Source: Streptomyces sp. PCS3-D2 (lineage in GTDB: Bacteria > Actinomycetota > Actinomycetes > Streptomycetales > Streptomycetaceae). From it: 64,000 nt of DNA. Shown here piece after piece: positions 26,385 to 44,366 of this stretch. The translations under genes were made by a program, and so were the position numbers. Under the pieces are notes generated by a model, which was given only the letters and a program-made list of their open reading frames with translations, ran no database searches and was not told the origin of the DNA. The first letter of the stretch is position 1; the number at the start of each line of letters is the position of its first letter. The stretch is from contig NZ_CP097801.1 in assembly GCF_000612545.2 (NCBI RefSeq), forward strand, positions 1-64,000, in the 5' to 3' direction.

Positions 26385-27018
26385 GGGCGGGGTCCTTCCG
26401 GTGGGAGGGCTGGCTGATGAGCCGGTGGAAGGTGGGCAGGTCCACGCCGCCGCCGGAGATCACCACGCCGATCGTCCCCGACTCGTGGGGGACGTGGCCG
26501 CCAAGGACGGCGGCCAGGACGCAGGCGCCGGTCGGTTCGGCCACGACCTTCAGGTGCCGGAAGGCGAACGCCATGGCGGCGGTGATGTCCTGGTCCGTCA
26601 GGGTCACGACGGCGTCCAGGAGCAGGGAGTTGACGGCCCAGGTCAGCGGGGAGGGGCTGGTGTGGCCGAGGCCGTCGGCGATGGTGGCGGGCGCCTCGGG
26701 CAGGGCGATGCGCCAGTTGCAGCGCATCGACAGCAGGGTGTCGGCGCCGTCCTCGGGTTCCACGCCGATGACCTTGATGCCGGGGTTCAGGTGCTTGGCG
26801 ATGGTGGCGGATCCAGCGGCCAGTTCGCCGCCGACTACGGGGACAACGAGGGTCTCGATCTCGGGGTGCTCGGTGAGGAGTTCCAGGGCGGCGGTCCCGG
26901 CCCCGGCCATCACGTGGCGGGACCCCGCCGAGGGGACGACGGCCAGGCCGTCGCGGGTGGCGATCTCGGCGACCAGGGCATCACGGTCCTCCGTCCCGCG
27001 TCCCGTCGTGAGGACCGA
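26377..27018 (-). pseudogene. C-terminal part of a PLP-dependent threonine-dehydratase-like enzyme
   Basis: The open frame contains SAGSRHVMAGAGTAALELL, then the strand of the phosphate-binding loop seen as VVPVVGGELAAGSA, then VIGVEPEDGADTLL and DGLGHTSPS. This is the second half of a fold-type II PLP enzyme (threonine dehydratase/serine racemase type). The N-terminal half with the PLP lysine is absent, and the usual GGGG loop is altered to VGGEL. It borders leuC and may mark a recombination edge of the biosynthetic cluster. Confidence 0.7.
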
Positions 27019-27094
27019 TCAAGGACGGGGCGGGGAGATCGCCTTCTAGCGTCGACCGGTATGACACGGATCTTCGTCGGCCGGAGGGAAAGCG

Positions 27095-28519
27095 ATGGGT
27101 AGGACACTCGCGGAGAAGGTCTGGGACGACCATGTCGTCCGGCGCGCCGAGGGCGAGCCCGACCTCCTCTTCATCGATCTGCACCTGCTGCACGAGGTGA
27201 CCAGCCCGCAGGCCTTCGAGGGGCTGCGCCAGGCCGGCCGCAAGGTCCGGCGCCTCGACCTCACCATCGCGACCGAGGACCACAACACCCCCACCCTCGA
27301 CATCGACAAGCCGATCGCGGACCCGGTCTCCCGGGCGCAGCTGGAGACGCTGCGCAGGAACTGTGCCGAGTTCGGTGTGCGCCTGCATCCGCTGGGCGAC
27401 GTCGAGCAGGGCGTGGTCCACGTCGTGGGGCCGCAGCTGGGGTTGACCCAGCCGGGCATGACGGTGGTCTGCGGTGACTCGCACACCTCCACGCACGGTG
27501 CCTTCGGTGCGCTGGCCTTCGGTATCGGCACGAGTCAGGTCGAGCACGTGCTGGCCACCCAGACCCTGCCGCTGGCCCGTCCGAAGACCATGGCGATCAC
27601 GGTCACCGGCGAGCTGGCCGACGGGGTCACCGCGAAGGACCTGATCCTGGCGATCATCGCGAGGATCGGCACCGGCGGTGGCCAGGGCTACATCCTGGAG
27701 TACCGCGGCGAGGCCGTCGAGAAGCTCTCGATGGAAGCCCGCATGACCATCTGCAACATGTCGATCGAGGCCGGCGCCCGGGCGGGCATGATCGCCCCCG
27801 ATCAGACCACCTTCGACTACCTCCGGGGCCGCGACCACGCCCCGGTGGGCGAGGACTGGGACGCGGCCGTCGCGTACTGGAAGACCCTGCGCACCGACGA
27901 GGACGCGGTCTTCGACGCCGAGGTCGTCATCGACGGCTCCGCGCTGTCCCCGTTCGTCACCTGGGGCACCAACCCGGGCCAGGGCGCGCCGCTGTCGGCC
28001 AGCGTCCCCGACCCGGCTTCGTACGAGGACGCTTCGGAGCGCCTCGCCGCCGAAAAGGCCCTGGAGTACATGGGGTTGACCGCCGGGCAGCCGCTGCGCG
28101 ACATCACGGTCGACACCGTCTTCGTAGGTTCCTGCACCAACGGCCGCATCGAGGACCTGCGCGCCGTGGCCGGGATCATCGAGGGCCGCAAAGTCGCCGA
28201 CGGGGTACGGATGCTCGTCGTTCCGGGGTCGGTCCGCGTGGCCCTCCAGGCCGTGGAAGAGGGTCTGGACAAGGTCTTCAAGGAGGCCGGGGCCGAGTGG
28301 CGGCACGCGGGCTGTTCGATGTGCCTGGGCATGAACCCCGACCAACTGGCGCCCGGTGAACGCTCCGCGTCCACCTCCAACCGCAACTTCGAGGGCCGGC
28401 AGGGCAAGGGCGGGCGTACCCACCTGGTGTCCCCGCAGGTGGCCGCCGCCACAGCGGTGCTGGGCCATCTGGCCTCGCCCGCCGACCTGTCCGCCGCCGA
28501 CGCGACCGCCGGAGTCTGA
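27095..28519 (+). CDS. leuC: Isopropylmalate/citramalate isomerase large subunit (LeuC-like)
   Basis: 474 residues, normal LeuC length, ATG with GGAGGG upstream. The three 4Fe-4S cysteines are present: Cys347 in GSCTNGR, and Cys407 and Cys410 in [29 protein letters not shown] is the standard substrate-site block. With LeuD it isomerises 2-alkylmalate to 3-alkylmalate. It is followed by the LeuD-LeuB fusion after 3 bp. Because it stands inside an NRPS-type cluster with its own LeuA homologue, it is probably a dedicated paralogue for 2-oxo acid chain extension. Confidence 0.93.
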
Positions 28520-28522
28520 ACC

Positions 28523-30154
28523 ATGGAAGCCTTCACCGTCCACACCGGCCGGGCCGTCCCGCTGCGCCGCAGCAACGTCGACACCGACCAGATCATCCCG
28601 GCCCACTGGCTCAAGAAGATCACCCGCGACGGCTTCGAGGACGGGCTCTTCGAGGCCTGGCGCAAGGACCCGGAGTTCGTCACGAACCGTCCGGAGCGCG
28701 CCGGTGCGACCGTGCTCGTCGCCGGCCCCGACTTCGGCACCGGATCCTCGCGCGAGCACGCCGTCTGGGCCCTGCAGAACTTCGGCTTCAAGGCGGTCAT
28801 CTCCTCCCGCTTCGCCGACATCTTCCGCGGGAACTCGCTGAAGAACGGCCTGCTGACCGTGGTCCTGCCGCAGGAGACCGTCGAGCGTCTGTGGAAGCTG
28901 ACCGAGGCCGACCCCACCGCCGAGATCACCGTCGACCTCGTCGACCGCCAGGTGCGCGCCGAAGGCGTCGTGGCCGAGTTCGAACTCGACGACAACGCCC
29001 GCTGGCGCCTCCTCGAAGGCCTCGACGACATCTCGCTCACCCTTCAGAACGAAGCGGACATCGCCACCTACGAAAGCACCCGCCCCGCCTTCAAACCGAG
29101 CACCGAGCAGTTGGGGCCTTCCGTGCTGAACCTCGCAGTGATCCCCGGTGATGGCATCGGCCAGGAAGTCGTGGCTCAGGGACTCAAGGTCCTTACCGCG
29201 GTCCTGCCCCAGGATGTGAAGCTGGAGACCAAGCAATACGATCTCGGCGCCCAGCGCTGGCACCGCACCGGCGAGACCCTCCCGGACGCGGAACTCGAAG
29301 CCCTGGCGCGCCACGACGCGATCCTGCTGGGCGCCATCGGCGACCCCTCGGTCCCGTCCGGCGTGCTGGAGCGCGGCCTGCTGCTGAAGCTGCGCTTCGC
29401 GTTCGACCACTTCATCAACCTGCGGCCGTCGAAGCTGTTCCCCAACACCGCCACCCCCCTGGCGGGCCGCCCGGACATCGACTTCGTCGTCGTCCGCGAG
29501 GGCACCGAGGGTCCGTACACCGGCAACGGCGGCAGCCTGCGCACCGGCACCCCCGCCGAGGTGGCCACCGAGGTCAGCGTCAACACCGCGTACGGTGTCG
29601 AGCGCGTCGTCCGCGACGCCTACGAGCGGGCCAATGCCCGCCCCCGCAAGAAGCTGACGCTCGTTCACAAGAACAACGTCCTCGTGTACGCGGGCCACCT
29701 GTGGAAGAACATCTTCGACAAGGTCGGCCGGGAGTACCCCGAGGTCACCACCGACTACCTGCACGTGGACGCCGCGACGATCTTCTTCGTCACGCAGCCG
29801 GAGCGCTTCGACGTCATCGTCACGGACAACCTCTTCGGTGACATCCTCACCGACCTGGCCGCGGCCGTCACGGGCGGAATCGGCCTGGCCGCCTCCGGGA
29901 ACATCAATCCGACCGGCGCCTTCCCGTCCATGTTCGAGCCCGTCCACGGCTCGGCCCCGGACATCGCCGGCACCGGGAAGGCGGACCCGACCGCGACGAT
30001 CCTCTCGGTCGCCCTCCTGCTGCGCCACCTCGGCTACGAGGACGAGGCCGTCCGCATCGAGGACGCGGTCTCCGCCGACCTCACCGAACGAGACGGAACC
30101 TTCCGCTCCACCGACGCGATCGGCGACGCCCTCGCCGCGCGCGCAGCCGGCTGA
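28523..30154 (+). CDS. leuDB: LeuD-LeuB fusion: isomerase small subunit plus 3-isopropylmalate dehydrogenase
   Basis: 543 residues in one uninterrupted frame. Residues 1-~198 are a complete LeuD ([33 protein letters not shown] at the end). A ~5-residue joint (STEQLG) leads into a complete LeuB from about residue 202 ([57 protein letters not shown]). The dehydrogenase oxidatively decarboxylates 3-alkylmalate to the extended 2-oxo acid. LeuD and LeuB are normally separate proteins; fusion would channel consecutive steps. Confidence 0.93.
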
Positions 30155-30299
30155 CACCCCGGTACCAGCGCTGCCGCCCGATTCCCCGCACAGGAGAAAC
30201 GGGCGGCGTGCACTTTTCCCTTCCGGCAGGGCAGGGAATTCCGATTGCCTTCCATCGACCCCCTTGATCGGGACCGTCAATTCGGACAGGATGAAAATC

Positions 30300-30692
30300 A
30301 TGACGAGTAAGCCAGTGAACATCAAGGCAACGCTTGATTCGTTCAGCGACCTGTGGAGTCCGCGTATCGTCGCCCAATTCAACGACTACGACGTACGCGT
30401 GGCGAAATTTCATGGCGAATATATCTGGCACGCACACCACGACACGGACGAATTGTTCATCGTGATGTCCGGCCGGCTGGTCATCCATCTGCGCGAGGCG
30501 GATGCCGAGCGGTCCGTCACCCTCGATCAGGGCGACACGTACGTGGTCCCGCTGGGCACCGAGCACAAACCGGTGGCCGACGAGGAGGCGCACATCCTCA
30601 TGGTCGAGCCCACCGGGACGCTCACCGTCGGGGACACCCACGAAGAGGTCCCCGACTATGTCGACGCCACGACCGGGCACCGCGTGATCTGA
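30300..30692 (+). CDS. Small single-domain cupin protein
   Basis: 130 residues; an alternative ATG lies three codons upstream. The two cupin motifs are clear: WHAHHDTDELFIVMSG (HxH-x4-E-x6-G) and GDTYVVPLGTEHKP. The metal ligands His, His, Glu and His are all present. Cupins of this kind may be isomerases, oxygenases or metal-binding chaperones; the role here is unknown. It lies about 145 bp after leuDB in the same direction and ends before the bidirectional hairpin, so it belongs to the leuC-leuDB operon or has its own promoter. Confidence 0.82.
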   Translation: MTSKPVNIKATLDSFSDLWSPRIVAQFNDYDVRVAKFHGEYIWHAHHDTDELFIVMSGRLVIHLREADAERSVTLDQGDTYVVPLGTEHKPVADEEAHILMVEPTGTLTVGDTHEEVPDYVDATTGHRVI

Positions 30693-30711
30693 TTTCCGTA
30701 CGTGAAAACTT

Positions 30712-30744
30712 GCGGGGCCCGCCCCTTTGGGGGGCGGGTCCCGC
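30712..30744. terminator. Bidirectional hairpin between convergent operons
   Basis: Arms 30712-30725 and 30731-30744 pair over 14 bp with one G-T wobble and a 5-nt loop. It sits between the stop codons of the cupin gene and the thioesterase gene. Confidence 0.8.
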
Positions 30745-30763
30745 GGCACGTCTTCCATCGGGG

Positions 30764-31519
30764 CTATCGCCGGGAATCCGCGGCCGTCAGTTCGGCGGAG
30801 ACGAGGCGGACGATATCCGTCTCGCATTCCCGGAGATAGTGGTGTCCGCCTGGGAATGTCTCCACCCGGGTGGGTGCTGTGGTGGCCTCGGACCAGGACC
30901 GGAGTTCCTCGACCGAGCAGGTGTGGTCGTCCGCCCCGCCGAGCACCGTGATAGGCGCGCTCAGCGGAGTGAGGGCCTCCGGCCGGTAGCGGTCTAGGAG
31001 GGCGAGGTCCGCACGCAGCGGCGGGAGGATGATCGGCAGCAGGCCCGCGTGGTCGTAGACCGCGGCGTCGGGCCCGCCCAGGCTCCGCATCGCGGCGACG
31101 AGTTCCGCGTCGTCGAGGCGGTGCCGGTGCTCGCCGTCGATCCGGTGCGGGGCCGGCCTCGCGGAGACGAACACGTGGCTCATGACGAAGCCGTCCGTGT
31201 CCTCCAGGCGGCGGGCGACCTCGTAGGACAGGCCGGTGCCCATGCTGTGGCCGAAGAGGTGGACCGGAACGTCTAGGAGCGGGCGCAGTGCCTCGGCCAG
31301 CCGGTCGGCCATCTGCCCCATCTCCTCGATGGGCTGTTCGGCGATCCGGTCCTGCCGGCCCGGGTACTGGACGGCGATCAGCTCGGTTCCGCCGGGGAGC
31401 AGTGCGGCCCATGAGGCGAAGGAGCCCGCGGTGCCGCCGGCATGGGGCAGGCAGACGAGCCGGCTGCGCACCGGGCCATCGACGGGGTGCCGGCGCAGCC
31501 AGCGGCCGGAGCCGCTCAC
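30764..31519 (-). CDS. Type II thioesterase
   Basis: 251 residues from a GTG that overlaps the aminotransferase stop as GTGA. Catalytic triad: Ser92 in GHSMG, Asp in GGADDH near residue 195, and His in PGGHHYL near residue 224. LPHAGGTAGSF is the oxyanion loop of NRPS/PKS type II thioesterases. In a cluster with one stand-alone carrier protein and no condensation domain it most likely releases the finished amino acid from the carrier, as CytC4 is thought to do; an editing role is the alternative. Confidence 0.92.
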   Translation of the reverse strand: MSGSGRWLRRHPVDGPVRSRLVCLPHAGGTAGSFASWAALLPGGTELIAVQYPGRQDRIAEQPIEEMGQMADRLAEALRPLLDVPVHLFGHSMGTGLSYEVARRLEDTDGFVMSHVFVSARPAPHRIDGEHRHRLDDAELVAAMRSLGGPDAAVYDHAGLLPIILPPLRADLALLDRYRPEALTPLSAPITVLGGADDHTCSVEELRSWSEATTAPTRVETFPGGHHYLRECETDIVRLVSAELTAADSRR

Positions 31520-32793
31520 CGAGCGCTCCGCGCGTCGCGCAGTTCCAGGAGAGTCTCGGCGAGCCGGTTGATGCCCTCGGCGATGTCCCACTCGTCGGGG
31601 CTGAGGCTGAGGCGGATGCAGCTGCGGCCGTGGGTGCGCAGGAAGGGCGTGTCGAGGGGCTGTACGAAGAAGTGGCGGCCGGGGACCACGAACATCTTCT
31701 TGCGCTTGAGCAGTTCGTACACTTCGAGGTCGTCGAACCAGTCGTGGTCGAAGGACAGCCAGCAGAACATGCCCCCGTCGCTGGTGTGCAGGCGCCAGTT
31801 CAGGTCGTCGGGGAGGGCCTCCGCGAGGAGGGTTTCCGCCATGGTCCGTTTGGCCCTGTAGTACGGCTTGATGTGCTGGGTGGTCAGCACGTCGATGCGG
31901 CGCGTGGCGAGCATCTCCTCGGCGACCGTCTGGAAGAGCTGCGGGGTGTGCAGTGCCGAGTTGGCGATGAAGGACACCATCGGGTCGATGAGCTCGGCGG
32001 GGCCGATCGCGAATGCTATGCGCTCGCCGGGGAGTCCGGCTTTGGACAGCGTGAAGAGGTTGATCACCTGGGGGTGGAGTACGGGTGCGACGCGGGTCTG
32101 CACCACGCCGGGGAATGGTTCTCCGTACGCGTGGTCGATGACCAGCGGGGCGTCGTGCTGTTCGGCGATGGAGATGAGGAACTTGAGTTCGGCTGTCTCG
32201 ATGCTGCTGCCGGTGGGGTTGGCCGGGTTGGACAGCAGCATGAGGCCGATGTCGCGCTGCCGGGCGAGGGCGTCAAGGTTGACGGCGTACCGGAAGGCGT
32301 GTCTGCCTTCTTCTACGATCAGGGGCTCGATGCCGATGATCCCGCCGGGGTCGAGGCCGAGTCCCTGGTAGCCGGTGTAGTCGGGAAGCCGCGGTAGGAC
32401 CAGGGGACGAACGGGGCCGTCCGAGGACGGGCCGGTGAAGAGCGTGGTCGCGACGAAGGACAGCATCTGGCTGCCGGGGCCGACGACGACGTTCTCCGGG
32501 CCGATGGACCACCCGTAGGTGAGGTTGAAGTAGTCGACGACGGCGTCGACCAGTCCGGTGGTTCCCCGGGAGGGTCCGTAGCTGGTGCTGGCCTCCACGA
32601 ACCGTTCCTCGACCGCCGCGCGGGTCATCTCCTGCCAGGCCGCGACGACTTTGGGGATGTGGGAGGGGTTGCCGGGACTGAGGTTCAGCCATGCGCCGTC
32701 GTCTGCGTCCTGACCGGCTGCAGCGATGTCCTCCATGATGCTGCGGATGCCCGACAGCCGGTACATTTGCCGGCCCCGACTCGATAGCTGCAC
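31516..32793 (-). CDS. PLP aminotransferase, AvtA-like (class I/II)
   Basis: 425 residues from the GTG at 32793, where the sequence MQLSSRGRQMYRLSGIRSIMED aligns with the start of alanine-valine transaminase AvtA; GGAAGAG lies upstream. PLP lysine is Lys251 (TLSKAG), with NPANPTG (Asn192) and VIDHAYGE (Asp220). The C-terminal arginine for the substrate carboxylate is in SCIRLSLS. It would aminate the 2-oxo acid made by the Leu-type enzymes, for instance 2-oxobutyrate to 2-aminobutyrate. Coupled with the thioesterase gene. Confidence 0.9.
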   Translation of the reverse strand: MQLSSRGRQMYRLSGIRSIMEDIAAAGQDADDGAWLNLSPGNPSHIPKVVAAWQEMTRAAVEERFVEASTSYGPSRGTTGLVDAVVDYFNLTYGWSIGPENVVVGPGSQMLSFVATTLFTGPSSDGPVRPLVLPRLPDYTGYQGLGLDPGGIIGIEPLIVEEGRHAFRYAVNLDALARQRDIGLMLLSNPANPTGSSIETAELKFLISIAEQHDAPLVIDHAYGEPFPGVVQTRVAPVLHPQVINLFTLSKAGLPGERIAFAIGPAELIDPMVSFIANSALHTPQLFQTVAEEMLATRRIDVLTTQHIKPYYRAKRTMAETLLAEALPDDLNWRLHTSDGGMFCWLSFDHDWFDDLEVYELLKRKKMFVVPGRHFFVQPLDTPFLRTHGRSCIRLSLSPDEWDIAEGINRLAETLLELRDARSAR

Positions 32794-32906
32794 TGGGTGC
32801 TCTTCCTTGTGGTGGATGGGATGCACGACTGCCGGGGACCGGGCCCTGGGGGCCGGCCCCCGGCGGACGGGTGCGTGGTGCGGGAATGGACTGCGGCGAT
32901 CGGCCG

Positions 32907-33134
32907 TCAGGCGGCCGAGCGGGCGGCCTCGATGTGCTCGGAGATTTGCTGGACCGTGGACTTGCGGAACAGCTGGTCCATCGGGATCTCGATGCCGAGC
33001 TCGGTGAGGATCGCGACCTGGATCTGGGTCATGATCAGCGAGTGGCCGCCCAGGTCGAAGAAGTCGTCGGTGTCGGAGAATTCTGCCAGCTTGAGCTCGC
33101 GGCTCCAGATGGCGTGGATCTGCTCGGCGATCAT
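32907..33134 (-). CDS. Stand-alone peptidyl carrier protein
   Basis: 75 residues. The phosphopantetheine site is Ser32 in DDFFDLGGHSLIMTQ. Start ATG with AAAGGA upstream. Size and sequence fit a discrete carrier that is charged by the neighbouring adenylation protein and presents the aminoacyl thioester to the iron enzyme. It lies 41 bp downstream of the iron enzyme gene and 113 bp upstream of the aminotransferase. Confidence 0.93.
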   Translation of the reverse strand: MIAEQIHAIWSRELKLAEFSDTDDFFDLGGHSLIMTQIQVAILTELGIEIPMDQLFRKSTVQQISEHIEAARSAA

Positions 33135-33175
33135 GGCGGGGTCCTTTCGGGACTCGTTCGTCGGGAAGGGCGGGG

Positions 33176-34135: not shown

Positions 34136-34191
34136 GGTGATGTCGTTCCTCTGCTCTGCGTGTGTGGTGTGCGGAAGGACAGGAGTGCTGG

Positions 34192-35754: not shown

Positions 35755-35792
35755 CGGAAGGGTTCCCTTCGAGGTACGGGGTAGGAAGACGC

Positions 35793-36449
35793 TCAGGCGA
35801 GGGCTGAGACGGGCGCGCCGAGCAGGAGGCTCTTGTCGCTGGCGAGCAGATAGCTGTAGAAGGGGTTCCCGGGGTGGAACCCGCGGGCCACGAGCTCGCT
35901 CACGCCGATCCGGCGGGTCCGTACCGGTCCCGTCGACCGGGCGCCGGCGACGGGTATGAACCCCAGCTCGGCCAGGCGTGACGCGGCCCGGCCTGTGGCC
36001 ACTTCGGCCACGACCTCACCGACGTCGTGCGACACGGCCCACTGCAGACAGCCCTTGACGAGTCCGCCGACCGCCCCGAAGGGCAGTTCGGGCAGGGCCC
36101 GGTCCGCGTATCCGGGCCGGACGAAGGGCCGTCGGACCTGGACGAGGCGACGGCTGCGGCGCAGGACGCCGTCGAGGTCCGGCCACTCGCAGAGCGGCAG
36201 TCCAAGCGGCGAGTAGGCGACGAGCTCGGCGCCAGCCACCAGCTCGCCCTCGACGAGGACCAGCATGTGGGAGGTGTGGAACCGGTGGGGATCCGATGCC
36301 TCGGTCGCAGCGGTGGCGATGCCGAACAGGTCTGTTGCGGTCTGCTCCCGCAGCGCCTCGATCGCGAGGAGGTCGAGTTCGCTGTGGGCGGTGTAGACGA
36401 AGCAGTCGCGGCCGGGGTCCTCGTCGCTCTCGTTGAAGGTGAAGTCCAT
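35793..36449 (-). CDS. GNAT-like acyltransferase
   Basis: 218 residues from the ATG at 36449. The sequence HMLVLVEGELVAGAELVAYSPLG, then RLVQVRRPFVRPGY, and LVKGCLQWAVSHDVGEVVAEV fits a GNAT fold related to N-acyltransferases and autoinducer-synthase-like proteins. A plausible role is N-acetylation of the toxic amino acid product, giving self-resistance. A biosynthetic acylation or signal synthesis cannot be excluded. It lies between the LeuA and adenylation genes with short gaps (38-64 bp). Confidence 0.65.
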   Translation of the reverse strand: MDFTFNESDEDPGRDCFVYTAHSELDLLAIEALREQTATDLFGIATAATEASDPHRFHTSHMLVLVEGELVAGAELVAYSPLGLPLCEWPDLDGVLRRSRRLVQVRRPFVRPGYADRALPELPFGAVGGLVKGCLQWAVSHDVGEVVAEVATGRAASRLAELGFIPVAGARSTGPVRTRRIGVSELVARGFHPGNPFYSYLLASDKSLLLGAPVSALA

Positions 36450-36513
36450 CTCTCGGCTCGCGCGGGTGGAGGGGTGGGCGGGGAGGGAGGGTTCGCGGCC
36501 GGGACGGCCCTGT

Positions 36514-38304
36514 TCAGGCACGGGCCCGGTTCACGGCCGAGGTGACGGCGGCCAGCCGTGCCGTGTCCTCGTCGCCGGCCAGGGCGGCTCCGTACCAGGT
36601 GGCGCCGGCGAGGGCGAGCCGTGCGTAGGCGGCGTAGCGGGTACCGAGGCTGTCGCTGACCGGGTGGGCCGTGATCTCGGTCAGGGCTGCGTCGATGCCG
36701 TGTGCGGCGAGGGCGGCAGTGTAGGCGGCTGCGATGTCGGGGCCCGTGCCGGTGATCCGGGTCTGCAGGCCCGAGGCGTCCACGACGAGGGCGTCGACAA
36801 CGGTGGCCGCTGCCTCCCTGGTCGCCTCGAACTCCTTGAGCACCAGGGCCGGGGTGTCCGTGTCGAGGTACATGCGGGAGAAGACGGCGTGCAGTTGCCG
36901 GGAGGTGAGCTCGATGCCGTCGCCGTCGGCGACCGCCTGCACCTCCTTCGCCAGCTCCACGCGCATCCCGCGCGGCAGGTCGAGGCCGTAGACGCTCTTG
37001 AGTACGTGGGCGACGCCGCCCTTGCCGGACTGGCTGTTGACGCGGACGACGGACTCGTAGGTGCGGCCGACGTCCTTGGGGTCGATGGGCAGGTACGGGA
37101 CGTCCCACGGGATCTGCTCGGTGGTGGTCCCGGCTTCCGCGGCCTGCCGTTCGATGTCGGCGAGGCCCTTGGCGATGGCGTCCTGGTGGGTTCCCGAGAA
37201 AGCGGTGTAGACGAGGTCGCCGACATAGGGATGGCGGGCGCCGATGGGCATCTGGTTGGCGAACTCGACCGTGGAGCGGATCTGGTCGATGTCGGAGAAG
37301 TCGAGCTGGGGGTCGACGCCCTGGCTGAACAGGTTCAGGCCGAGGGTGGCCAGGCAAACGTTGCCGGTGCGCTCGCCGTTCCCGAAGAGGGTGCCCTCGA
37401 TGCGGTCGGCACCGGCGAGGACCGCGAGCTCCGCGGCGGCCACGGCCGTGCCGCGGTCGTTGTGCGGGTGCACGGACAGGACGACGGCGTCGCGCCGCTC
37501 GAGGTTGCGATGCATCCACTCGACCTGGTCGGCGAAGACGTGCGGCGAGTCGGTCTCCACGGTGGTCGGCAGGTTGAGGGTGACCGGCCGGTCGGGGCTC
37601 GCGTCCCAGAGAGAGATGATGGAATTCGAGACCTCGAGTACGAACTCCGGCTCGGTGACGTTGAACGTTTCCGGAGAGTATTCGAAGCGCAGTCGTGTTC
37701 CCTTGGCGGCGTCCGCGTGGCGGGCTATCCGCTCGGCCGAACGGAGCGCCATCTGCTGGACCTCGTCGGCGGTCATCCCGAATACGACGTCCCGCCACAG
37801 GCAGGCGGTCGCATTGCACAGGTGCACCATGGCCCGGTCGGCGCCCTCGATGGCTTCGAAGGTCCGGTCGATCAGCTCGGGCCGGGCCGGGGTGAAGACC
37901 GAGATCGTGACGTCGTCGGGGATCCGGTCCTGCTTTATCAGTGTACGGAGAAAGGAGAAGTCGGCCTCGCTGGCGGATGGGTATCCGACCTCGATGTCCT
38001 TGAATCCCATGCGGACGAGCAGGTCGAACATCCGGGTCTTGCGCTCGATGTCCATGGGGCTGCTCAGCGCCTGGTTTCCGTCCCGCAGGTCGACCGAAGC
38101 CCACAGGGGGGCCTTGACCAGGGTGTTCGACGGCCAGGTCCGGTCGGTGAGCTCCTGTGGCAGCCGGGGTGCGGTCCGGTTGTAGCGCTGGAACGGCATG
38201 GCGGATCCGCGTTGCGCGTTCCACCAGGGCTGGTCGGTGCGGTGAGGACCGGCAGGAGTCCTGATTCCCGGAGCGGTGAGGGGCGACGGGGGTGCCTCGG
38301 TCAT
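36514..38304 (-). CDS. leuA: 2-isopropylmalate synthase / citramalate synthase-like (LeuA paralogue)
   Basis: 596 residues, full length including the C-terminal regulatory domain. The (beta/alpha)8 catalytic domain has SVDLRDGNQALSSPM, the metal-binding SVHPHNDRGTA and GTLFGNGERTGNV. A substrate-pocket segment reads VHLCNATACLWRDVVF where ordinary actinobacterial LeuA, as I recall it, has VHxYNSTSxLQRRVVF. That suggests a changed 2-oxo acid substrate, for example pyruvate (giving citramalate). It condenses the oxo acid with acetyl-CoA to start chain extension by LeuC and LeuD-LeuB. First gene after the antiporter in the leftward operon. Confidence 0.9.
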   Translation of the reverse strand: MTEAPPSPLTAPGIRTPAGPHRTDQPWWNAQRGSAMPFQRYNRTAPRLPQELTDRTWPSNTLVKAPLWASVDLRDGNQALSSPMDIERKTRMFDLLVRMGFKDIEVGYPSASEADFSFLRTLIKQDRIPDDVTISVFTPARPELIDRTFEAIEGADRAMVHLCNATACLWRDVVFGMTADEVQQMALRSAERIARHADAAKGTRLRFEYSPETFNVTEPEFVLEVSNSIISLWDASPDRPVTLNLPTTVETDSPHVFADQVEWMHRNLERRDAVVLSVHPHNDRGTAVAAAELAVLAGADRIEGTLFGNGERTGNVCLATLGLNLFSQGVDPQLDFSDIDQIRSTVEFANQMPIGARHPYVGDLVYTAFSGTHQDAIAKGLADIERQAAEAGTTTEQIPWDVPYLPIDPKDVGRTYESVVRVNSQSGKGGVAHVLKSVYGLDLPRGMRVELAKEVQAVADGDGIELTSRQLHAVFSRMYLDTDTPALVLKEFEATREAAATVVDALVVDASGLQTRITGTGPDIAAAYTAALAAHGIDAALTEITAHPVSDSLGTRYAAYARLALAGATWYGAALAGDEDTARLAAVTSAVNRARA

Positions 38305-38433
38305 TCTATGCCTCCCTTTGACGTCGGTAAGATGCGGCCGGCAACGAGCGGAAAGGACCTCTCGACCGGTTCTTGATTCAAAATGTAGGAGGGGGTGTCC
38401 TCATCCCATCCCCGGCCGGTCCTCGGGACGGCC

Positions 38434-39762
38434 TCAGGAGCTCTTTCGGGCCGATTCCGCGAGCGGTTCGGTGCCGGACACGGGGAATTCGGCGAAAATC
38501 TCCGGGGAGGTCATCTCCGGTGCAGCCGCCTCCAGTGGCGTGCCGGTCTCCGCGCGGTCCTTTTCCTGTCCGCGCACACCGAACAGGTTGAGTAGCGGCC
38601 CGGTCATGGCGGTCGTGACGACGGCCATGACGACCATCATGGAATAGAAGCCCTCGTTGATCAGGCCCATGTCGAGGGCCACGGCCACGATGACGATCTC
38701 GGTCAGGCCGCGGGTGTTCATGAGGACCGCGGCCGGCAGGGCGGCGGCGTGCGGGAGTCCTGCCAGCCGGGCACCGGCATAGGTGCCGCCCGCCTTGGAC
38801 ACGATGGCCACGCCGATCACGGCGAGGAGGGTGAGCACGGCGGAGACGGAGAACGCGGACAGGTCCACCTTGGTCCCGACGATCACGAAGTAGAGGGGAA
38901 GCAGGATGTGCCCGACCTGGCTCATCTGCCGCATGATCTGCTTACGCAGCCCGCCCAGTTCGCCGCGGGGCATGACCGCGCCGAAGGCAAAGGCGCCGAA
39001 GACGAAGTGGATGCCGATCCACTCGGTCGCGGCGCAGGAGAGCATCAGTGCGACGACGAGGACGGGCACGACCCGTTCGGCAGGCGTGCCGCGGTCGGCG
39101 GCCCGCTGGGCCATCACGCGCAGCAGCGGCTTCACGACGGCGATCAGGACGAGGAGGTAAACGGGCACCAGGGCCATGCGCCACTGCCCGGAGGTCCCGG
39201 CGTAGCCGACCACACCCGCGAGGCAGATCCAGGCAATGAGGTCGCCGACCGCAGCGGCAGCGAGGGTGAGCGCGCCGACGGGGTGCCGGGCCAGGTCTCG
39301 GTCGGAGAGGATCCGGGCGAGGACCGGGAAGGCCGTTACGGACATGGCCACGCCGACGAAGAGCACGAACGCGCCCTTGCTGTCGGGGGCGTACGCGTCG
39401 GCGAGCGGCACGGCGAGTGCGGCGCCGGCGACGAGGGGCACGACGACGGATCCGGCGGCGACTCCGAGGGTGGCCTTGCGGCGGTTGCGGCCGAATCCGC
39501 CCTCGATCTCGTAGCCGACGATGAACATGAACGTGGCCAGGCCCACGTTGGCGAGGGCGCCGAGCAGAGGTTGCACGACTGCGGGCAGAATCGTTTCTGC
39601 TCCTGCGGCGGCGATGATCATCGGGCTGGCGAGCAGCCCGGCGCAGATCTCGCCGACGACGGCTGGCTGGCCGACCCGCTGGGCGAGCGCGCCGAGCACC
39701 CGGGCGGCTCCGAGGGCCAGGGCGAAGGCGAGGAAGAAATCGACGAGTAGGTGTCCGGTCAT
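38434..39762 (-). CDS. Cation/proton antiporter (CPA2, Kef/NapA-type)
   Basis: 442 residues with about twelve hydrophobic segments. Typical features are VGEICAGLLASPMI near the N-terminus, the helix GLATFMFIVGYEIE, and MNTRGLTEIVIVAVALDMGL toward the end. Members exchange K+ or Na+ for protons at the plasma membrane. The cytoplasmic tail of ~55 residues is short, without RCK domain. It lies 129 bp upstream of leuA in the same direction and may help tolerance or export of an amino acid antibiotic; its link to the pathway is positional only. Confidence 0.88.
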   Translation of the reverse strand: MTGHLLVDFFLAFALALGAARVLGALAQRVGQPAVVGEICAGLLASPMIIAAAGAETILPAVVQPLLGALANVGLATFMFIVGYEIEGGFGRNRRKATLGVAAGSVVVPLVAGAALAVPLADAYAPDSKGAFVLFVGVAMSVTAFPVLARILSDRDLARHPVGALTLAAAAVGDLIAWICLAGVVGYAGTSGQWRMALVPVYLLVLIAVVKPLLRVMAQRAADRGTPAERVVPVLVVALMLSCAATEWIGIHFVFGAFAFGAVMPRGELGGLRKQIMRQMSQVGHILLPLYFVIVGTKVDLSAFSVSAVLTLLAVIGVAIVSKAGGTYAGARLAGLPHAAALPAAVLMNTRGLTEIVIVAVALDMGLINEGFYSMMVVMAVVTTAMTGPLLNLFGVRGQEKDRAETGTPLEAAAPEMTSPEIFAEFPVSGTEPLAESARKSS

Positions 39763-39812
39763 GGGACGACTCCGAGGAAGGTGGTCGTACGGGGGACGGA
39801 GAAGGGTGCTGA

Positions 39813-41834
39813 TCAGGCGGCCAGGAGCCGCGCCCCGCAGTCCGCAGCGGAGCCTGCGGCAGCCGCAGGTGCGGCATCGGCCGTCGGCCGTGCGGTGCTG
39901 AAGGCCGGCGGTGCCGGAGCGGCTCGCTTCTCGCCGTCCTCGTCGGGGTCGCGCAGCTGGGCGCAGTACGTCTTCACCAGCGGGTGCATGCAGTACCGGC
40001 CGGGCTCGGGGTGGGACAACAAGTGCTCGTCGACCAGGTCTTCGAGCATGTGCTCAGCGACGTACACGGGAAGTCCAGCCAGGACGGAGGCCGTGGCCAC
40101 GTCGGTGTGGTGGTCCCCGGCGACCCCGAGGAGGCGCATCAGCCGCTGCTGGCCTGCGTTGAGCCGGTGGTACGAGTCGTCGAAGCGGTCGGCGACACCG
40201 CCCTGTTCGGTCCGCAGGTCGGAGAGCCGGCAGACGGGATCGGCCAGCCGTGCGGCCAGATGGGACAGCTGCCACGACGGCCGACGGCGCAGCCGTGCGG
40301 CTGCGGCGGAGATCGCCAGGGGCAGGTGGCCGCAGAGTTCGAGGACTGGCGCGGCCTCGTGCTGATCGGGCCGGACATGGCGCTTGCCGAGGACCCTGCA
40401 GAACAGCTCGTGGCTGTCGGCCGGGGTGAGTACGTCGAGGGAGAGGACCTGGGTCGCGGACCACGTGGTCATGGTCAGCCGGCGCCTGCTGGAGACCAGC
40501 GTCAGCCCCGCGTCCCCGGCGGGGAGCAGGGGGCGTATCTGCTCGGCGCAGGTGGCGTTGTCGAGGACCACGAGCAGGCGCCGGCCTTCGGTGCGCGCCC
40601 GCCAGGCCGCGCCCAGCTCCTCGTCTGTGTCGGGGAGTTCGCGCTCGGCCATCCCGGACAAGGTCAGGAGCCTGCGGAGCGCCTCGCGGTGGTCGAGCGG
40701 GTCGGGGTACGGGCCGTGAGCACGCAGGTCCAGGAAGTACCGGCCGTCCGGGTAGTCGCCCGCGATGCGGTGGGCGACGTGCAGGAGCAGGGCGGTCTTG
40801 CCGACCCCGGCCATTCCGTCGACGGCGAGAACGCGCCGCGGTCCGGGCTGGCCCGCTTCGCCGAGGAGGGTCCCGACTTCTGCCTCGCGTCCCACAAAGT
40901 GGACGATGTCCGGCGGCAGACTGTCGGGTAAGGGCGGAGCAGGGGGCCGGCCGGGGCTCGCCGCGGTGACCGGATCCGTTCGGGGGGCGGTGTCCTGTGA
41001 GCCCTCCGGCAGGGGGGTGAGCCGTGCTACGACCGGCTGCGGGGCTGAGATCCGAGCGCCGCGGTGCGGGGAGGCGCTGTCCGGCGGGGTGTCGGTGTCC
41101 TCGCGCAGCATCAGCTGGTGGATCTCCATCAGCTCGGGGCCGGGACTGAGGCCGAGCTGATCCACGAGGCGGCGGCGCGCCTGTTCGTACACGGCGAAGG
41201 CGCGGGCCCGGGAACCGGACCGGTACAGGGCGAGGACGTACTGGGCGACCATGCGCTCGCGCAGCGGGTACTCGGCAACCCACGCGGCGAGCTCGCTGAT
41301 GAGGCTGGTGTGCCGGTCGCGGGCGAGTTCGAGGTCGATGCATTCCTCGACCACCGACAGCCGCACTTCATTCACGCCCGCGACCTGGGCCTGAAGTGCG
41401 TCACTGTGAATCCCCGAAAGCATCGGACCGCTCCACAGGGACAACGCCGCGCGAAACTCGACGATGGCGTCCGCCGGGCGTTGCTCGCCCAGATGAGTGC
41501 GGGCGCGGGCCACGTGCTGGTCGAACTGGTGGAGATCCAGCCTGGCCGGGAGTATGTCGAGTCTGTAGCCGTCCGCGACCGCGATGATGGCCGCGCCCGA
41601 GGGAGCGATGACCGTGCGCAGGTCGGAGACGGCATTGCGGATCTGTTTCTCGGCGGTGCTGGGCGGTGTAGGGCCCCAGACCGCGTCGACGAGCCGGCCA
41701 ATGGAGGCGCGTCGGTTCTCCGAGAGCAGCAATGAGGCGAGAACGATCTGGTGTTTCATCCCCCTGAGGGGCACCGAGCGTCCGCTGAGTGTGAGCTCCA
41801 GCGGACCCAGTACCCGAAACTCCACGTCGTGCAT
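39813..41834 (-). CDS. SARP-family pathway regulator with NB-ARC domain (AfsR-like)
   Basis: 673 residues. N-terminal OmpR-type winged helix (FRVLGPLELTLSGRSVPL; SIGRLVDAVWG), bacterial transcriptional activation domain to about residue 255, then a Pro/Ala-rich linker and NB-ARC ATPase with P-loop GMAGVGKTALL. No TPR array follows, so it is a mid-size AfsR-like form. SARPs activate antibiotic clusters by binding direct heptamer repeats upstream of -10 sites. It is probably the activator of this cluster. Confidence 0.92.
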   Translation of the reverse strand: MHDVEFRVLGPLELTLSGRSVPLRGMKHQIVLASLLLSENRRASIGRLVDAVWGPTPPSTAEKQIRNAVSDLRTVIAPSGAAIIAVADGYRLDILPARLDLHQFDQHVARARTHLGEQRPADAIVEFRAALSLWSGPMLSGIHSDALQAQVAGVNEVRLSVVEECIDLELARDRHTSLISELAAWVAEYPLRERMVAQYVLALYRSGSRARAFAVYEQARRRLVDQLGLSPGPELMEIHQLMLREDTDTPPDSASPHRGARISAPQPVVARLTPLPEGSQDTAPRTDPVTAASPGRPPAPPLPDSLPPDIVHFVGREAEVGTLLGEAGQPGPRRVLAVDGMAGVGKTALLLHVAHRIAGDYPDGRYFLDLRAHGPYPDPLDHREALRRLLTLSGMAERELPDTDEELGAAWRARTEGRRLLVVLDNATCAEQIRPLLPAGDAGLTLVSSRRRLTMTTWSATQVLSLDVLTPADSHELFCRVLGKRHVRPDQHEAAPVLELCGHLPLAISAAAARLRRRPSWQLSHLAARLADPVCRLSDLRTEQGGVADRFDDSYHRLNAGQQRLMRLLGVAGDHHTDVATASVLAGLPVYVAEHMLEDLVDEHLLSHPEPGRYCMHPLVKTYCAQLRDPDEDGEKRAAPAPPAFSTARPTADAAPAAAAGSAADCGARLLAA

Positions 41835-41963
41835 GAAGTTGAGACCCCGATCTTGCATTCTGAACAGTGGGCGATTGCCGTCGCCCGCGTCGTTGCATGG
41901 CGACGGGGGGAGGAATGGGAAGCCCGCCCAGGCTGGGGTGAAGCCTGGGACGGGACGCGGGAT

Positions 41964-41990
41964 GCATCACCATCCCCCCGATGGTGACGC
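41964..41990. repeat. Inverted repeat between SARP and EamA genes
   Basis: GCATCACCATC (41964-41974) and 41980-41990 pair with one mismatch around a C5 loop. It is 130 bp upstream of the SARP start and 40 bp after the EamA stop, so it is either the terminator of the DUF2000-EamA unit or an operator for the SARP gene. Confidence 0.5.
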
Positions 41991-42029
41991 GTTGCCGCTG
42001 GGTGGCCTGAAAGCACCTGTATGCAGGTG

Positions 42030-43040
42030 TCAGTTGCCTATCGGCTCGGTCGCCCGGACCTGTTGGCCCGGCGCCCCGGAGCCCACGGGGCCGGTCGGCG
42101 TCTCCGCCGGCGGTCGCCGGAACCTGCCTTGGGTGACGGCCAGGAGGGCGCCGGCCAGCATGACGGCGGCGCCTACGGCCTGGAGGCCGGTGAAGGACTC
42201 CCCCAGGAAGATGACGGCACAGGTCACTCCGAAGACCGGGACGGTGAACATGATCACTGTCGCCGTCGAGGGGCTGACGACGCGCAGCCCGCGGTAGTAG
42301 CAGAGGTAGGCCACGGCGGTCGGTCCGATGGCCAGGTAGACGACGTTGGCCCAGGTGTGGCCGGACAGTCTGCTCCAGTCGACCTCAGGCAGGGACGGGA
42401 TGGCGAAAACCAGCAGCCCCAGGGCGCCCGTGAGCGTGCCGAAAGTCGTCGCCCGCAGCGGGTCCATTCCCACCAGGACCTTCTTCGAGGCGATGCTGTA
42501 CACCGCCCACGACAAGGCTCCGAGGAGGAAGACGAGGTCGCCCGCCAACCGCGATCCCCGGGCGTCGACGCCGGCACCTCCGGCCCCGACGAAAAAGACC
42601 ACCGCACCCGCGAGCCCCAGCGCGAGGCCCCCTATTCGGGGAGCCGACGCCTTTTCCCGCCCGAGGGCGAGAAGGATGGCCGTCGTGATGACGGGGCTCA
42701 GCACCGGAACAATGATGCTCCCATCGATGGAGGGGGCGAGAGAAAGCCCCCAGAAGAAGAACAGATTATACGCGAAGACTCCGATGAGACCCACTGCCGC
42801 CGCCCTGCACACTTGACGGAACGTGATCTTCGGTCCTTTTGGCTTCCGGCTCATGAAAACGAGCAGGAGAAGCAGGATGAGCGCACCGCCCCCGAATCTG
42901 AGAACCGCCGCGACTTGATGAGGCATGTTCCCGACCACCATCTTCGAACTGGCGAATGCACTGCCGAAGAAGGCCATGGTCGCGAGGAGATAGAAATGCG
43001 CGTTGACGGATTCACTCCGCGATGTCGTCTGGTTGTGCAT
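42030..43040 (-). CDS. EamA/DMT-family exporter
   Basis: 336 residues starting at MHNQTTSRSE, giving a short polar N-terminus before the first span. Ten membrane segments in two EamA repeats are visible (for example MAFFGSAFASSKMVVG; FGLSLAPSIDGSIIVPVLSP-like helices; FTVPVFGVTCAVIFLGE). DMT transporters of this type export amino acids and small metabolites. It is the second gene after DUF2000 (19-bp gap) and the likely exporter of the product. Confidence 0.9.
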   Translation of the reverse strand: MHNQTTSRSESVNAHFYLLATMAFFGSAFASSKMVVGNMPHQVAAVLRFGGGALILLLLLVFMSRKPKGPKITFRQVCRAAAVGLIGVFAYNLFFFWGLSLAPSIDGSIIVPVLSPVITTAILLALGREKASAPRIGGLALGLAGAVVFFVGAGGAGVDARGSRLAGDLVFLLGALSWAVYSIASKKVLVGMDPLRATTFGTLTGALGLLVFAIPSLPEVDWSRLSGHTWANVVYLAIGPTAVAYLCYYRGLRVVSPSTATVIMFTVPVFGVTCAVIFLGESFTGLQAVGAAVMLAGALLAVTQGRFRRPPAETPTGPVGSGAPGQQVRATEPIGN

Positions 43041-43059
43041 GATGCGCCCCCGGGGTGCG

Positions 43060-43491
43060 TCAGGGATGCATCCTGGCACCCTTGATGATCTTGTCCACGG
43101 CATTGCGGGGTCCGTAGACGGCCATGCCCACGAGGTCCAGGTTGTCCCGGTGCACGGCGCGCACGGCGGCACGGTTGTCCCGGTCGTTGTTGGTGGTGAA
43201 GAGGTCCGAGGTGAACACCGACAGGGGAACCCCGCGGGTCACGGCACGCTGGTGGGCCGTGACGAGGGCCTCCTTGCCAGCCTCGAAGACCAGCACGGGC
43301 TGGCGGAACATGGGCAGGTACTCGGTGTCGTCGGCGTCGGAATAGGGCTCTCCGATTACCTCCGGCACCTTTCGGCCAATGCCACTGACCAGGAAGGCGG
43401 TCATGTTCAGCCGCTGCCATGTCTGAAGATCGTCCCTCAGGACGACCGCGATCTTTGTCTCGAAACGAACGGGTTCGCTGGCGTTTTCCAT
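43060..43491 (-). CDS. DUF2000 family protein
   Basis: 143 residues from the ATG at 43491 (a GTG two codons upstream is an alternative). The pattern KIAVVLRDDLQTWQRLNMTAF, VIGEPYSDADDTEYLPMFRQP and AVYGPRNAVDKIIKG is that of DUF2000 (PF09391). Such proteins have an alpha/beta fold resembling peptidyl-tRNA hydrolase II and no proven reaction; I have the impression that they often sit with EamA transporters and AraC regulators. It starts 51 bp from the divergent AraC gene. Confidence 0.8.
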   Translation of the reverse strand: MENASEPVRFETKIAVVLRDDLQTWQRLNMTAFLVSGIGRKVPEVIGEPYSDADDTEYLPMFRQPVLVFEAGKEALVTAHQRAVTRGVPLSVFTSDLFTTNNDRDNRAAVRAVHRDNLDLVGMAVYGPRNAVDKIIKGARMHP

Positions 43492-43529
43492 GGACACGAT
43501 TCAACTCTTTCCCGCGCCGGGGAGTCTTG

Positions 43530-43541
43530 TACGATCTTTGC
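43530..43541 (+). promoter_or_regulatory. -10 element and leaderless start of the AraC gene
   Basis: TACGAT at 43530-43535 is followed after 6 bp by the ATG at 43542. There is no ribosome-binding site, so the transcript probably begins at or next to the start codon. No convincing -35 is seen. Confidence 0.55.
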
Positions 43542-44366
43542 ATGGTTGATCAACCAGAGCTCCGGGCCTGGCATCCGCCCCTCGTCGGAATCGAAGAGGT
43601 ATTCCACGCCCGCATCACCGACCACGTCTACCCCATGCACACACACGAGACCTGGACGTTGCTGATCGTCGACGACGGCATGGTCCGATACAACCTGGGA
43701 CGCCACGAGCACGGTGCCCTGGACCAGATAGTCACACTGCTTCCCCCGCACGTCCCACATAATGGACGCTCGGTCACCCCGGGCGGTTTTCAAAAGCGCG
43801 TGATGTACCTCGACTCGACCCAGCTGGGAGACGATCTCATCGGGCTGGCGGTCGACTCCCCCGTCCTTCAGGACCCCCTGCTGCGCCAGCGGATCCACCA
43901 GCTCCACGAGGCCCTGGAGTGCCGCGGGGACGAGCTGGAGGTCGAGAGCCGGCTGGCGCTGGTCTCCGAACGGCTGCGCGACCACCTGCGCCAGCGTGTG
44001 CAGGACCGCTCCGCGGTCAGGGAGCCCGGGATCGCGCACCGGCTGCGCGAGCTGCTCGACGCCCGGTTCGTGGAGGGGGTCAGCCTCCAGCAGGCCTCGG
44101 CTGCGCTGCACGTCCATCCGGCCCACCTGGTACGGGTGTTCAGCCGCGAGTTCGGGATGGGGGTGCACCAGTACGTGACCAGTCGGCGGGTCGACCTGGC
44201 GCGCAAGCTGCTGCTCAGCGGCATGTCACCCCGTCAGGTCGCGGTCGCCGCCGGGTTCTACGACCAGTCGCACTTCCACCGGCACTTCAAACGCGTCCTC
44301 GGCACGAGCCCGGGTCGCTACGCGGGCAGTGCGCCGGCCGTACAGGCGACCGCCCACCTGCTGTGA
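43542..44366 (+). CDS. AraC-family transcriptional regulator
   Basis: 274 residues. The N-terminal cupin-like sensor domain (YPMHTHETWTLLIVDDG) is followed by a C-terminal double helix-turn-helix (SLQQASAALHVHPAHLVRVF; SPRQVAVAAGFYDQSHFHRHFK). It is divergent from DUF2000-eamA across a 50-bp gap. This arrangement, sensor regulator next to exporter, suggests that it induces export in response to an amino acid or the product. Confidence 0.9.
   Translation: MVDQPELRAWHPPLVGIEEVFHARITDHVYPMHTHETWTLLIVDDGMVRYNLGRHEHGALDQIVTLLPPHVPHNGRSVTPGGFQKRVMYLDSTQLGDDLIGLAVDSPVLQDPLLRQRIHQLHEALECRGDELEVESRLALVSERLRDHLRQRVQDRSAVREPGIAHRLRELLDARFVEGVSLQQASAALHVHPAHLVRVFSREFGMGVHQYVTSRRVDLARKLLLSGMSPRQVAVAAGFYDQSHFHRHFKRVLGTSPGRYAGSAPAVQATAHLL

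What the first reader, a model, noticed from the sequence alone, without database searches (positions are those of the whole stretch)
27095..44366. Cluster for a free non-protein amino acid built by leucine-type chain extension and carrier-bound C-H modification
Seen: LeuA-like, LeuC, LeuD-LeuB, AvtA-like aminotransferase, lone A domain, lone carrier protein, SyrB2-type iron enzyme and type II thioesterase, with exporter, SARP and AraC regulators; no condensation domain. Known: CytC1-C4 (A, T, halogenase, thioesterase) make gamma,gamma-dichloroaminobutyrate (armentomycin) from 2-aminobutyrate. Inference: this locus makes its own 2-oxobutyrate (pyruvate + acetyl-CoA via citramalate) or a related oxo acid, aminates it, modifies it on the carrier and releases it as a small antimetabolite. 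The dedicated precursor set beside the A/T/iron-enzyme/TE cassette may be undescribed.
Basis: partly seen in the sequence, partly recalled or inferred. Interest (0 to 1): 0.92.

Follow-up and report, generated by a model that had tools for sequence, protein, structure and literature searches.

The report
Plasmid cluster making a leucine-mimic amino acid
A Streptomyces replicon that looks like a plasmid carries genes that probably build a small, free amino acid resembling leucine; they include extra leucine-making genes that match the chromosome's own copies almost letter for letter, apparently because the two sets keep overwriting each other.

Summary
The same core (LeuA, A domain, iron enzyme, carrier, AvtA, thioesterase, cupin, DUF2000, EamA, SARP, AraC) recurs in nine other actinobacterial loci, four on related 320-530 kb plasmids. 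None of the host's 50 condensation-domain matches lies on this contig. I read it as a pathway to a free, carrier-modified leucine mimic, probably from norvaline; gamma-chloronorvaline is the best single guess, unproven.

Four additions. (1) leuC-leuD-leuB is 99.5-99.8% identical to the host's chromosomal genes, yet its fusion and linker are shared by clusters whose copies are only 82-93% identical: old duplication plus gene conversion. (2) leuA and leuC share SARP-type promoter repeats (leuC's weak alone). (3) The LeuA has changed pocket residues and a decayed leucine-sensing domain. (4) The iron enzyme has His-x-Val where SyrB2 and CytC3 have His-x-Ala, so chlorination is not assured. Sister clusters hold citramalate synthase or 4-hydroxy-2-oxovalerate aldolase plus a LeuRS-editing-like protein, supporting a leucine mimic.

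The parts
27009..27041 (+). SARP-type operator upstream of leuC: three heptamers at 11-bp steps
   Evidence: Score 16.5 with a matrix trained on the NBC_01296 leuA promoter only; third best place in the window after two overlapping leuA ones; below the 95% level of simulated sequences (18.1) taken alone. The repeat is also before leuC in NBC_01296 and persists in G095 (L110).
27095..28519 (+). leuC, 3-isopropylmalate dehydratase large subunit, near-exact copy of the chromosomal gene
   Evidence: 100% aa to the chromosome C1 copy; 99.8% DNA
28523..30154 (+). leuD-leuB fused ORF (leuD part to 29103, 25-nt linker 29104-29128, leuB part from 29129)
   Evidence: the only match over the whole junction query (1-111) in one open frame among 393 Streptomyces genomes at E<=1e-30
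30291..30692 (+). cupin-domain protein
   Evidence: Cupin_2 37 bits, cut-off 27.2; conserved in the leu-type clusters
30764..31519 (-). stand-alone (type II) thioesterase
   Evidence: PF00975 159 bits; start inferred from the overlap with the aminotransferase stop
31516..32826 (-). AvtA-like aminotransferase
   Evidence: valine-pyruvate transaminase model NF006967 392 bits, cut-off 402
32907..33134 (-). stand-alone carrier protein
   Evidence: PF00550 62 bits
33176..34135 (-). non-haem iron/2-oxoglutarate enzyme of the aliphatic halogenase family, HxV subfamily
   Evidence: TIGR01762 292 bits; V127 aligned with the Ala of CytC3 and SyrB2; V in 36 of 36 rows with at least 50% identity
34192..35754 (-). 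stand-alone adenylation domain, code DIRCFGQDVK
   Evidence: positions read from motif anchors chosen by eye, not from a structure
35793..36521 (-). 242-aa protein of unknown family
   Evidence: no credible Pfam, NCBIfam or PDB match; present in L013, L014, L076-L079, truncated in L110, not detected in L034 or L015; model unusable, pLDDT 42
36514..38304 (-). LeuA paralogue, 2-isopropylmalate-synthase type, specialised
   Evidence: 52% to host housekeeping LeuA; pocket-region changes; LeuA_dimer 30 bits against 103 in the host housekeeping enzyme
38393..38436 (-). SARP-type operator upstream of leuA: four heptamers at 11-bp steps
   Evidence: score 22.7, best in the window; best of 60 simulated sequences 19.6
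38434..39762 (-). CPA2 cation/proton antiporter
   Evidence: PF00999 139 bits
39813..41858 (-). SARP regulator with NB-ARC domain
   Evidence: BTAD 134 bits, NB-ARC 32 bits
42030..43040 (-). EamA/DMT-family transporter
   Evidence: PF00892 135 bits
43060..43491 (-). DUF2000 protein
   Evidence: PF09391 165 bits; in the 10 leu-type clusters and in none of the other 33 sources searched at E<=1e-4
43500..44366 (+). AraC-family regulator (start uncertain)
   Evidence: HTH_18 and AraC_binding; homology begins at residue 36 of the longest ORF in L013 and L014

Best explanation
A secreted, free leucine-mimic amino acid is made in four stages. (1) The cluster's re-pocketed and predicted leucine-insensitive LeuA adds acetyl-CoA to a small 2-oxo acid (most likely 2-oxobutyrate), and LeuC plus the LeuD-LeuB fusion finish the one-carbon extension to 2-oxovalerate. 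(2) The AvtA-like enzyme aminates it to norvaline. (3) The A domain loads it on the lone carrier, where the HxV iron enzyme functionalises an unactivated C-H; gamma-chlorination, giving gamma-chloronorvaline, is the best single guess. (4) The thioesterase frees it and EamA and/or the CPA2 protein export it. The SARP switches on the leuA and leuC operons together through shared 11-bp repeats. leuCDB is an old duplication of the housekeeping genes whose sequence is repeatedly overwritten by gene conversion with the chromosome. Shown by sequence: gene content, conservation, fusion, homogenisation, promoter repeats, LeuA and iron-enzyme changes. Inferred: every chemical step, the regulation itself and the product.
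For: Core set in ten clusters. LeuA: 52% to housekeeping; M. tuberculosis L143->F and Y169->C in all seven cluster LeuAs aligned; LeuA_dimer 26-49 bits in those seven against 103 in the one housekeeping LeuA scored. Repeats before leuA and leuC. Sister clusters with the same A/iron-enzyme/carrier core hold other short 2-oxo-acid makers: citramalate synthase, acetaldehyde dehydrogenase plus 4-hydroxy-2-oxovalerate aldolase, and a protein with part of a LeuRS editing domain; LeuRS editing protects cells from norvaline (PMC8535176, passages). LeuABCD make norvaline from 2-oxobutyrate (PMC5595793, PMC2579280, passages). Gamma-chloronorvaline is a known Streptomyces product, titled 'a leucine analog' (PMC8659048, passages). 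Gene conversion.
Against: The HxV motif is not the HxA/HxG of characterised halogenases, so chloride binding is unproven. The A-domain code has R239, Q322 and D330, polar for a norvaline pocket. leuCDB is not seen beside two of the ten clusters and is decayed in a third, so it is not essential. The leuC operator alone does not pass the 95% level. The window has no LeuRS editing-like gene, and the match in the sister proteins covers only about half of the domain profile (81-178 of 185). No chemistry was tested. S. griseosporeus is not among the named hits, and I cannot tell whether its genome is held.
Confidence: 0.55

Rival explanations
1. The leu genes are a resistance device: the feedback-insensitive LeuA and extra LeuCDB raise the leucine pool so that the producer out-competes its own leucine-mimic toxin, whose precursor is an ordinary amino acid.
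For: LeuA_dimer domain decayed; leuCDB are unspecialised housekeeping copies; leucine-antagonist product class plausible.
Against: LeuA pocket-region positions changed alike in all seven cluster LeuAs aligned, not needed for making more leucine; in the fetched stretches of sister clusters CimA or MhpE/F stand in its place, which do not make leucine.
Confidence: 0.2
2. Armentomycin-type pathway: LeuA-CDB turns pyruvate into 2-oxobutyrate, aminated to 2-aminobutyrate and chlorinated on the carrier.
For: Same A/T/iron-enzyme/TE logic as the CytC cassette (CytC3 on carrier-bound 2-aminobutyrate: passages of PMC8407142; the four-gene cassette is recalled); a sister cluster has a real citramalate synthase; L143F could favour a smaller keto acid.
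Against: LeuA is far below the citramalate synthase cut-off; HxV not HxA; the LeuRS editing-like protein of sister clusters points to a leucine-size mimic.
Confidence: 0.15
3. The HxV enzyme is not a halogenase but a carrier-bound hydroxylase, desaturase or cyclase, so the product carries no chlorine. (This can be true together with the best explanation apart from its product guess.)
For: Val at the chloride-site position in 36 of 36 rows with at least 50% identity and 5 of 33 rows below. SyrB2 acting on norvaline already gives more hydroxylation (PMC4019311, passages).
Against: No Asp/Glu ligand, so not a facial-triad hydroxylase; TIGR01762 score above cut-off.
Confidence: 0.35
4. leuCDB was captured from the chromosome recently and independently in each strain rather than homogenised by gene conversion.
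For: 99.5-99.8% identity within the genome.
Against: Shared fusion point and linker, shared upstream repeat, and a leuD stretch next to the linker in NBRC 110611 that is only 82% identical over 101 nt to the other leuD copy of that genome while leuB beside it is 99.4%.
Confidence: 0.08

Closest known systems
CytC cassette / armentomycin (gamma,gamma-dichloroaminobutyrate; CytC3 3GJA, CytC1 3VNQ)
   Same: stand-alone A domain, carrier, iron/2OG enzyme and thioesterase acting on a carrier-bound small amino acid (cassette make-up recalled; CytC3 chemistry in passages of PMC8407142)
   Different: here a dedicated LeuA (+LeuCDB, AvtA) supply, HxV instead of HxA, A-domain code of its own
Gamma-chloronorvaline, Streptomyces griseosporeus (Narayanan 1980; seen only through passages of PMC8659048)
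   Same: product class and producer genus fit the gene logic
   Different: no gene cluster for it came up in my searches; identity of products unproven
SyrB1/SyrB2 (syringomycin)
   Same: same iron-enzyme family, carrier-bound substrate
   Different: SyrB2 serves an NRPS (recalled) and chlorinates Thr; HxA
Coronamic acid pathway (CmaA-E) (recalled)
   Same: aminoacyl modification by a SyrB2-type enzyme outside a peptide module
   Different: no Leu-type supply there; no CmaC-like cyclase noticed here, not searched for
Pseudomonas and S. ficellus clusters found here (L021, L017)
   Same: A domain, HxV enzyme and carrier; cupin and TE in Pseudomonas; AvtA and CPA2 in S. ficellus
   Different: MhpF/MhpE or CimA supply; LeuRS editing-like protein; LysE-type exporter in Pseudomonas

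Membership tests
Aliphatic iron/2OG halogenases (TIGR01762) | score above the family cut-off | tested here: met
   291.6 bits, cut-off 226.3
Aliphatic iron/2OG halogenases (TIGR01762) | two His iron ligands, no Asp/Glu third ligand | tested here: met
   aligned with CytC3 and SyrB2; both His conserved in the relatives
Aliphatic iron/2OG halogenases (TIGR01762) | small residue (Ala/Gly; the Gly variant recalled) at the carboxylate position | tested here: not met
   Val at 127; I therefore do not call it a proven halogenase
Aliphatic iron/2OG halogenases (TIGR01762) | chloride binding and chlorination | not testable with these tools
   needs biochemistry
CytC (armentomycin) cassette | stand-alone A, T, iron enzyme, TE and no C domain | tested here: met
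CytC (armentomycin) cassette | 2-aminobutyrate-specific A domain | not testable with these tools
   code DIRCFGQDVK by anchor motifs only; not compared residue by residue with CytC1
2-isopropylmalate synthase | family score and catalytic motifs | tested here: met
   NF002991 752 bits; DLRDGNQ, HPHNDRG, NLP-TVE aligned with 1sr9
2-isopropylmalate synthase | intact leucine-sensing domain | tested here: not met
   PF08502 29.8 bits (still above the 24.9 cut-off) against 102.9 in the host housekeeping LeuA
Citramalate synthase CimA | TIGR00977 cut-off | tested here: not met
   68.6 bits against 450; the S. ficellus relative scores 607.6
SARP regulon | BTAD regulator plus heptamer direct repeats at 11-bp steps before leuA | tested here: met
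   binding itself not tested; the SARP site geometry is recalled
SARP regulon | the same repeats before leuC | tested here: inconclusive
   third best in the window (16.5) but under the 95% level of simulated sequences (18.1); supported by position and by recurrence in NBC_01296 and G095
Gene-converted paralogues | within-genome identity above between-strain identity, with shared old junctions | tested here: met
   shown in two genomes, suggestive in a third (S. katrae)

The most novel reading that the evidence does not exclude
A family of mobile pathways assembles leucine mimics around an A-domain/carrier/HxV-iron-enzyme core, swapping in three different 2-oxo-acid modules (LeuA, CimA, MhpE/F). 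Its HxV enzymes do a C-H reaction other than chlorination. The leu-type branch keeps housekeeping leuCDB on its plasmid in lasting gene conversion with the host chromosome, and the other branches protect themselves with a LeuRS-editing-like protein that strips the mimic from tRNA.
Probability: 0.25. Interest if true: 0.82.

Novelty: new variant of a known kind. Interest (0 to 1): 0.62.

Why it matters
It joins a dedicated chain-extension supply to the stand-alone A/T/iron-enzyme/TE logic, gives a candidate cluster for a class of leucine antagonists for which my searches found none, exposes an HxV branch of the halogenase family, and shows housekeeping genes inside a specialised cluster that stay near-identical to the host's own copies. 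The LeuRS-editing-like protein in sister clusters suggests a tRNA-clearing self-resistance that can be tested directly.

Tried and rejected
Citramalate synthase for the window LeuA: rejected on score. NRPS membership: rejected for this contig. Recent capture of leuCDB: disfavoured. Structure models of DUF2000 (pLDDT 47) and of the 242-aa protein (pLDDT 42) were too poor for a fold search, so none was run. PDB searches for the 242-aa protein gave nothing credible. Second LeuRS in the host as resistance: one strong LeuRS editing match plus a weak one (30 bits) in another long frame that I take for ValRS. Literature searches for a published cluster of this make-up gave nothing usable; the library holds open-licence papers only. 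A generic repeat finder did not detect the degenerate promoter repeats, and a simple two-heptamer pattern was only weakly enriched: 20 matches, 12.2 expected, 2 of 100 shuffles as many.
Full report
Observation. The window is bases 1-64000 of contig 2 (100,620 bases) of its genome; contig 1 is 7.51 Mb. None of the 50 condensation-domain matches in the genome lies on this contig. The sequence on either side matches Streptomyces plasmids (208 and 104 records), but the best places cover only 10-15% of the queries and chromosomes were not searched as a control; with the separate 100-kb contig this makes a plasmid likely, not certain.

Distribution. Nine other loci hold the leu-type core: S. katrae (L013), NBRC 110611 (L014), S. 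morookaense (L034), Actinoplanes TBRC 11911 (L015), an unnamed Streptomyces chromosome (L110/G095), and plasmids of NBC_01296, NBC_00998, NBC_00069 and NBC_00161 (L076-L079). The NBC plasmid clusters are close to each other (99.4% and 99.6% in leuCDB for the two pairs measured), so they are not independent. In a sample of 393 Streptomyces genomes, four (window included) have the iron enzyme at 69% identity or more. In one of these, G051, the 11.3-kb contig has core genes but no LeuA match and ends near the A domain.

leuCDB. Window 27075-29103 matches chromosomal leuCD at 99.8% over 2029 nt and 29129-30155 matches chromosomal leuB at 99.5% over 1027 nt. Between them lies a linker absent from the host's chromosomal leuD and leuB but shared, with the same fusion point, by NBC and NBRC 110611 clusters. 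In NBRC 110611 cluster leuB is 99.4% identical to that genome's other leuB over 1007 nt, but the leuD end beside the linker is only 82% identical over 101 nt to its other leuD. The leuB tree pairs window with its own chromosome and the NBRC cluster with its own genome (support 1.0 each), while the two cluster copies are 82.8% identical. In S. katrae 125 nt are 97.6% identical, and the contig with the cluster and the contig with the other leuB copy break off at the same leuB residue, which suggests but does not prove near-identity beyond. Between window and NBC_01296 leuC, leuD and leuB are 91-93% identical and the 13 other genes compared 71-90%; the iron enzyme, at 90%, shows that this contrast alone proves nothing. 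I conclude an old duplication homogenised by gene conversion. The direction is not known, and the NBC chromosomes could not be examined. In G095 the leuC promoter repeat persists while only a 30-nt trace of leuC and remnants of leuB are found; L034 and L015 show no leuCDB in the stretch fetched. Among 393 Streptomyces genomes only the window matches the whole LeuD-LeuB junction query in one open frame at E<=1e-30; the other matches are LeuB with little or nothing of LeuD, or are broken by stops.

Regulation. A matrix from the six heptamers before NBC_01296 leuA, applied to the window, ranks the leuA upstream region first and second (22.7, 19.3) and the leuC upstream region third (16.5). In 60 simulated sequences the best score had median 14.7, 95% level 18.1 and maximum 19.6, so leuA is significant alone and leuC only by its position and its recurrence in NBC and G095. 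Similar repeats precede leuA in L013, L014 and L110, leuA and the iron enzyme in L015, and the iron enzyme in L112; L034 scores weakly (14.5), L016 and L017 have none convincing. L077 and L079 resemble the training sequence too closely to count.

LeuA. It is 52% identical to the host's housekeeping LeuA. Against the M. tuberculosis enzyme (1sr9) L143 becomes F and Y169 becomes C (numbering counted by me), and the same changes are in all seven cluster LeuAs aligned (window, L013, L014, L015, L034, L076, L110). That L143 lines the keto-acid pocket is recalled. The leucine-sensing domain scores 25.9-48.8 bits in these seven and 102.9 in the one housekeeping LeuA scored.

Iron enzyme and A domain. 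Of 69 rows read, 36 have at least 50% identity and all 36 have Val at the position of the SyrB2/CytC3 Ala; of the 33 below 50%, 5 have Val and 28 Ala. Some rows are the same gene fetched twice (L081/L110, L083/L112); the window itself (L080) and the matches without a locus were not read. None of the peptide patterns covers this motif. The A code is DIRCFGQDVK in nine of the ten leu-type clusters (L078 not read) and in L112, DIRLFGQDVK in six Pseudomonas loci and Xenorhabdus, DIRCFGVDVK in S. ficellus and Actinoplanes TFC3, DIRCFGVDIK in Microbispora. Its polar residues speak somewhat against norvaline.

Sister clusters. Eight loci (seven Pseudomonas, two of them from one strain, and one Xenorhabdus) carry acetaldehyde dehydrogenase and 4-hydroxy-2-oxovalerate aldolase genes. 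S. ficellus carries a citramalate synthase (607.6 bits, cut-off 450). A protein with a LeuRS editing-domain match (PF13603, 65-67 bits, cut-off 25, covering about half of the profile) sits in the seven Pseudomonas loci and S. ficellus, 8 of 43 sources searched, not in the 8.6-kb Xenorhabdus contig. By eye its PAHxxxD motif differs from LeuRS at one of the acidic positions, so activity is unproven. DUF2000 is in the ten leu-type clusters only; its PDB relative is 2gax, and that this has a peptidyl-tRNA-hydrolase-like fold is recalled; the model made here was unusable.

Literature seen. PMC8659048, PMC8407142, PMC4019311, PMC8535176, PMC5595793 and PMC2579280: matching passages only. Other papers: search listings only. 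No paper on this gene set came up in those searches.

Verdict. Product identity and chlorination are open. The gene-converted leuCDB and the modular sister clusters are the most surprising parts.

Noticed in passing
window 23326-25847 (+): IS21-type istA/istB element upstream of the cluster; in the NBC plasmids a phosphopantetheinyl transferase gene lies directly upstream of leuC.
   Followed up: partly
window 26377-26913 (-): Truncated PLP-dependent (PALP) dehydratase-like fragment between the IS element and leuC.
   Followed up: no
L110 8483-8837, 10838-11188, 17036-17342: In the chromosomal G095 cluster the antiporter, the 242-aa gene and leuCDB look degenerate while the core is present.
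   Followed up: partly
L020 and L026: Pseudomonas sp. FEN holds two copies of the Mhp-type cluster; in L026 the A-domain and aldolase matches are split.
   Followed up: no
G004 C25:42028 and C23:151131: The Actinoplanes strain with a leu-type cluster has two long frames with strong LeuRS editing-domain matches, a possible second LeuRS.
   Followed up: no
G004 C37:24069-25680: The same Actinoplanes strain has a second adjacent leuD and leuB pair, not within the cluster stretch L015.
   Followed up: no
L037, L038, L046, L031, L036: HxV iron enzymes also occur in Pandoraea, Burkholderia and Mycobacterium loci with A and T domains; no function assigned.
   Followed up: no
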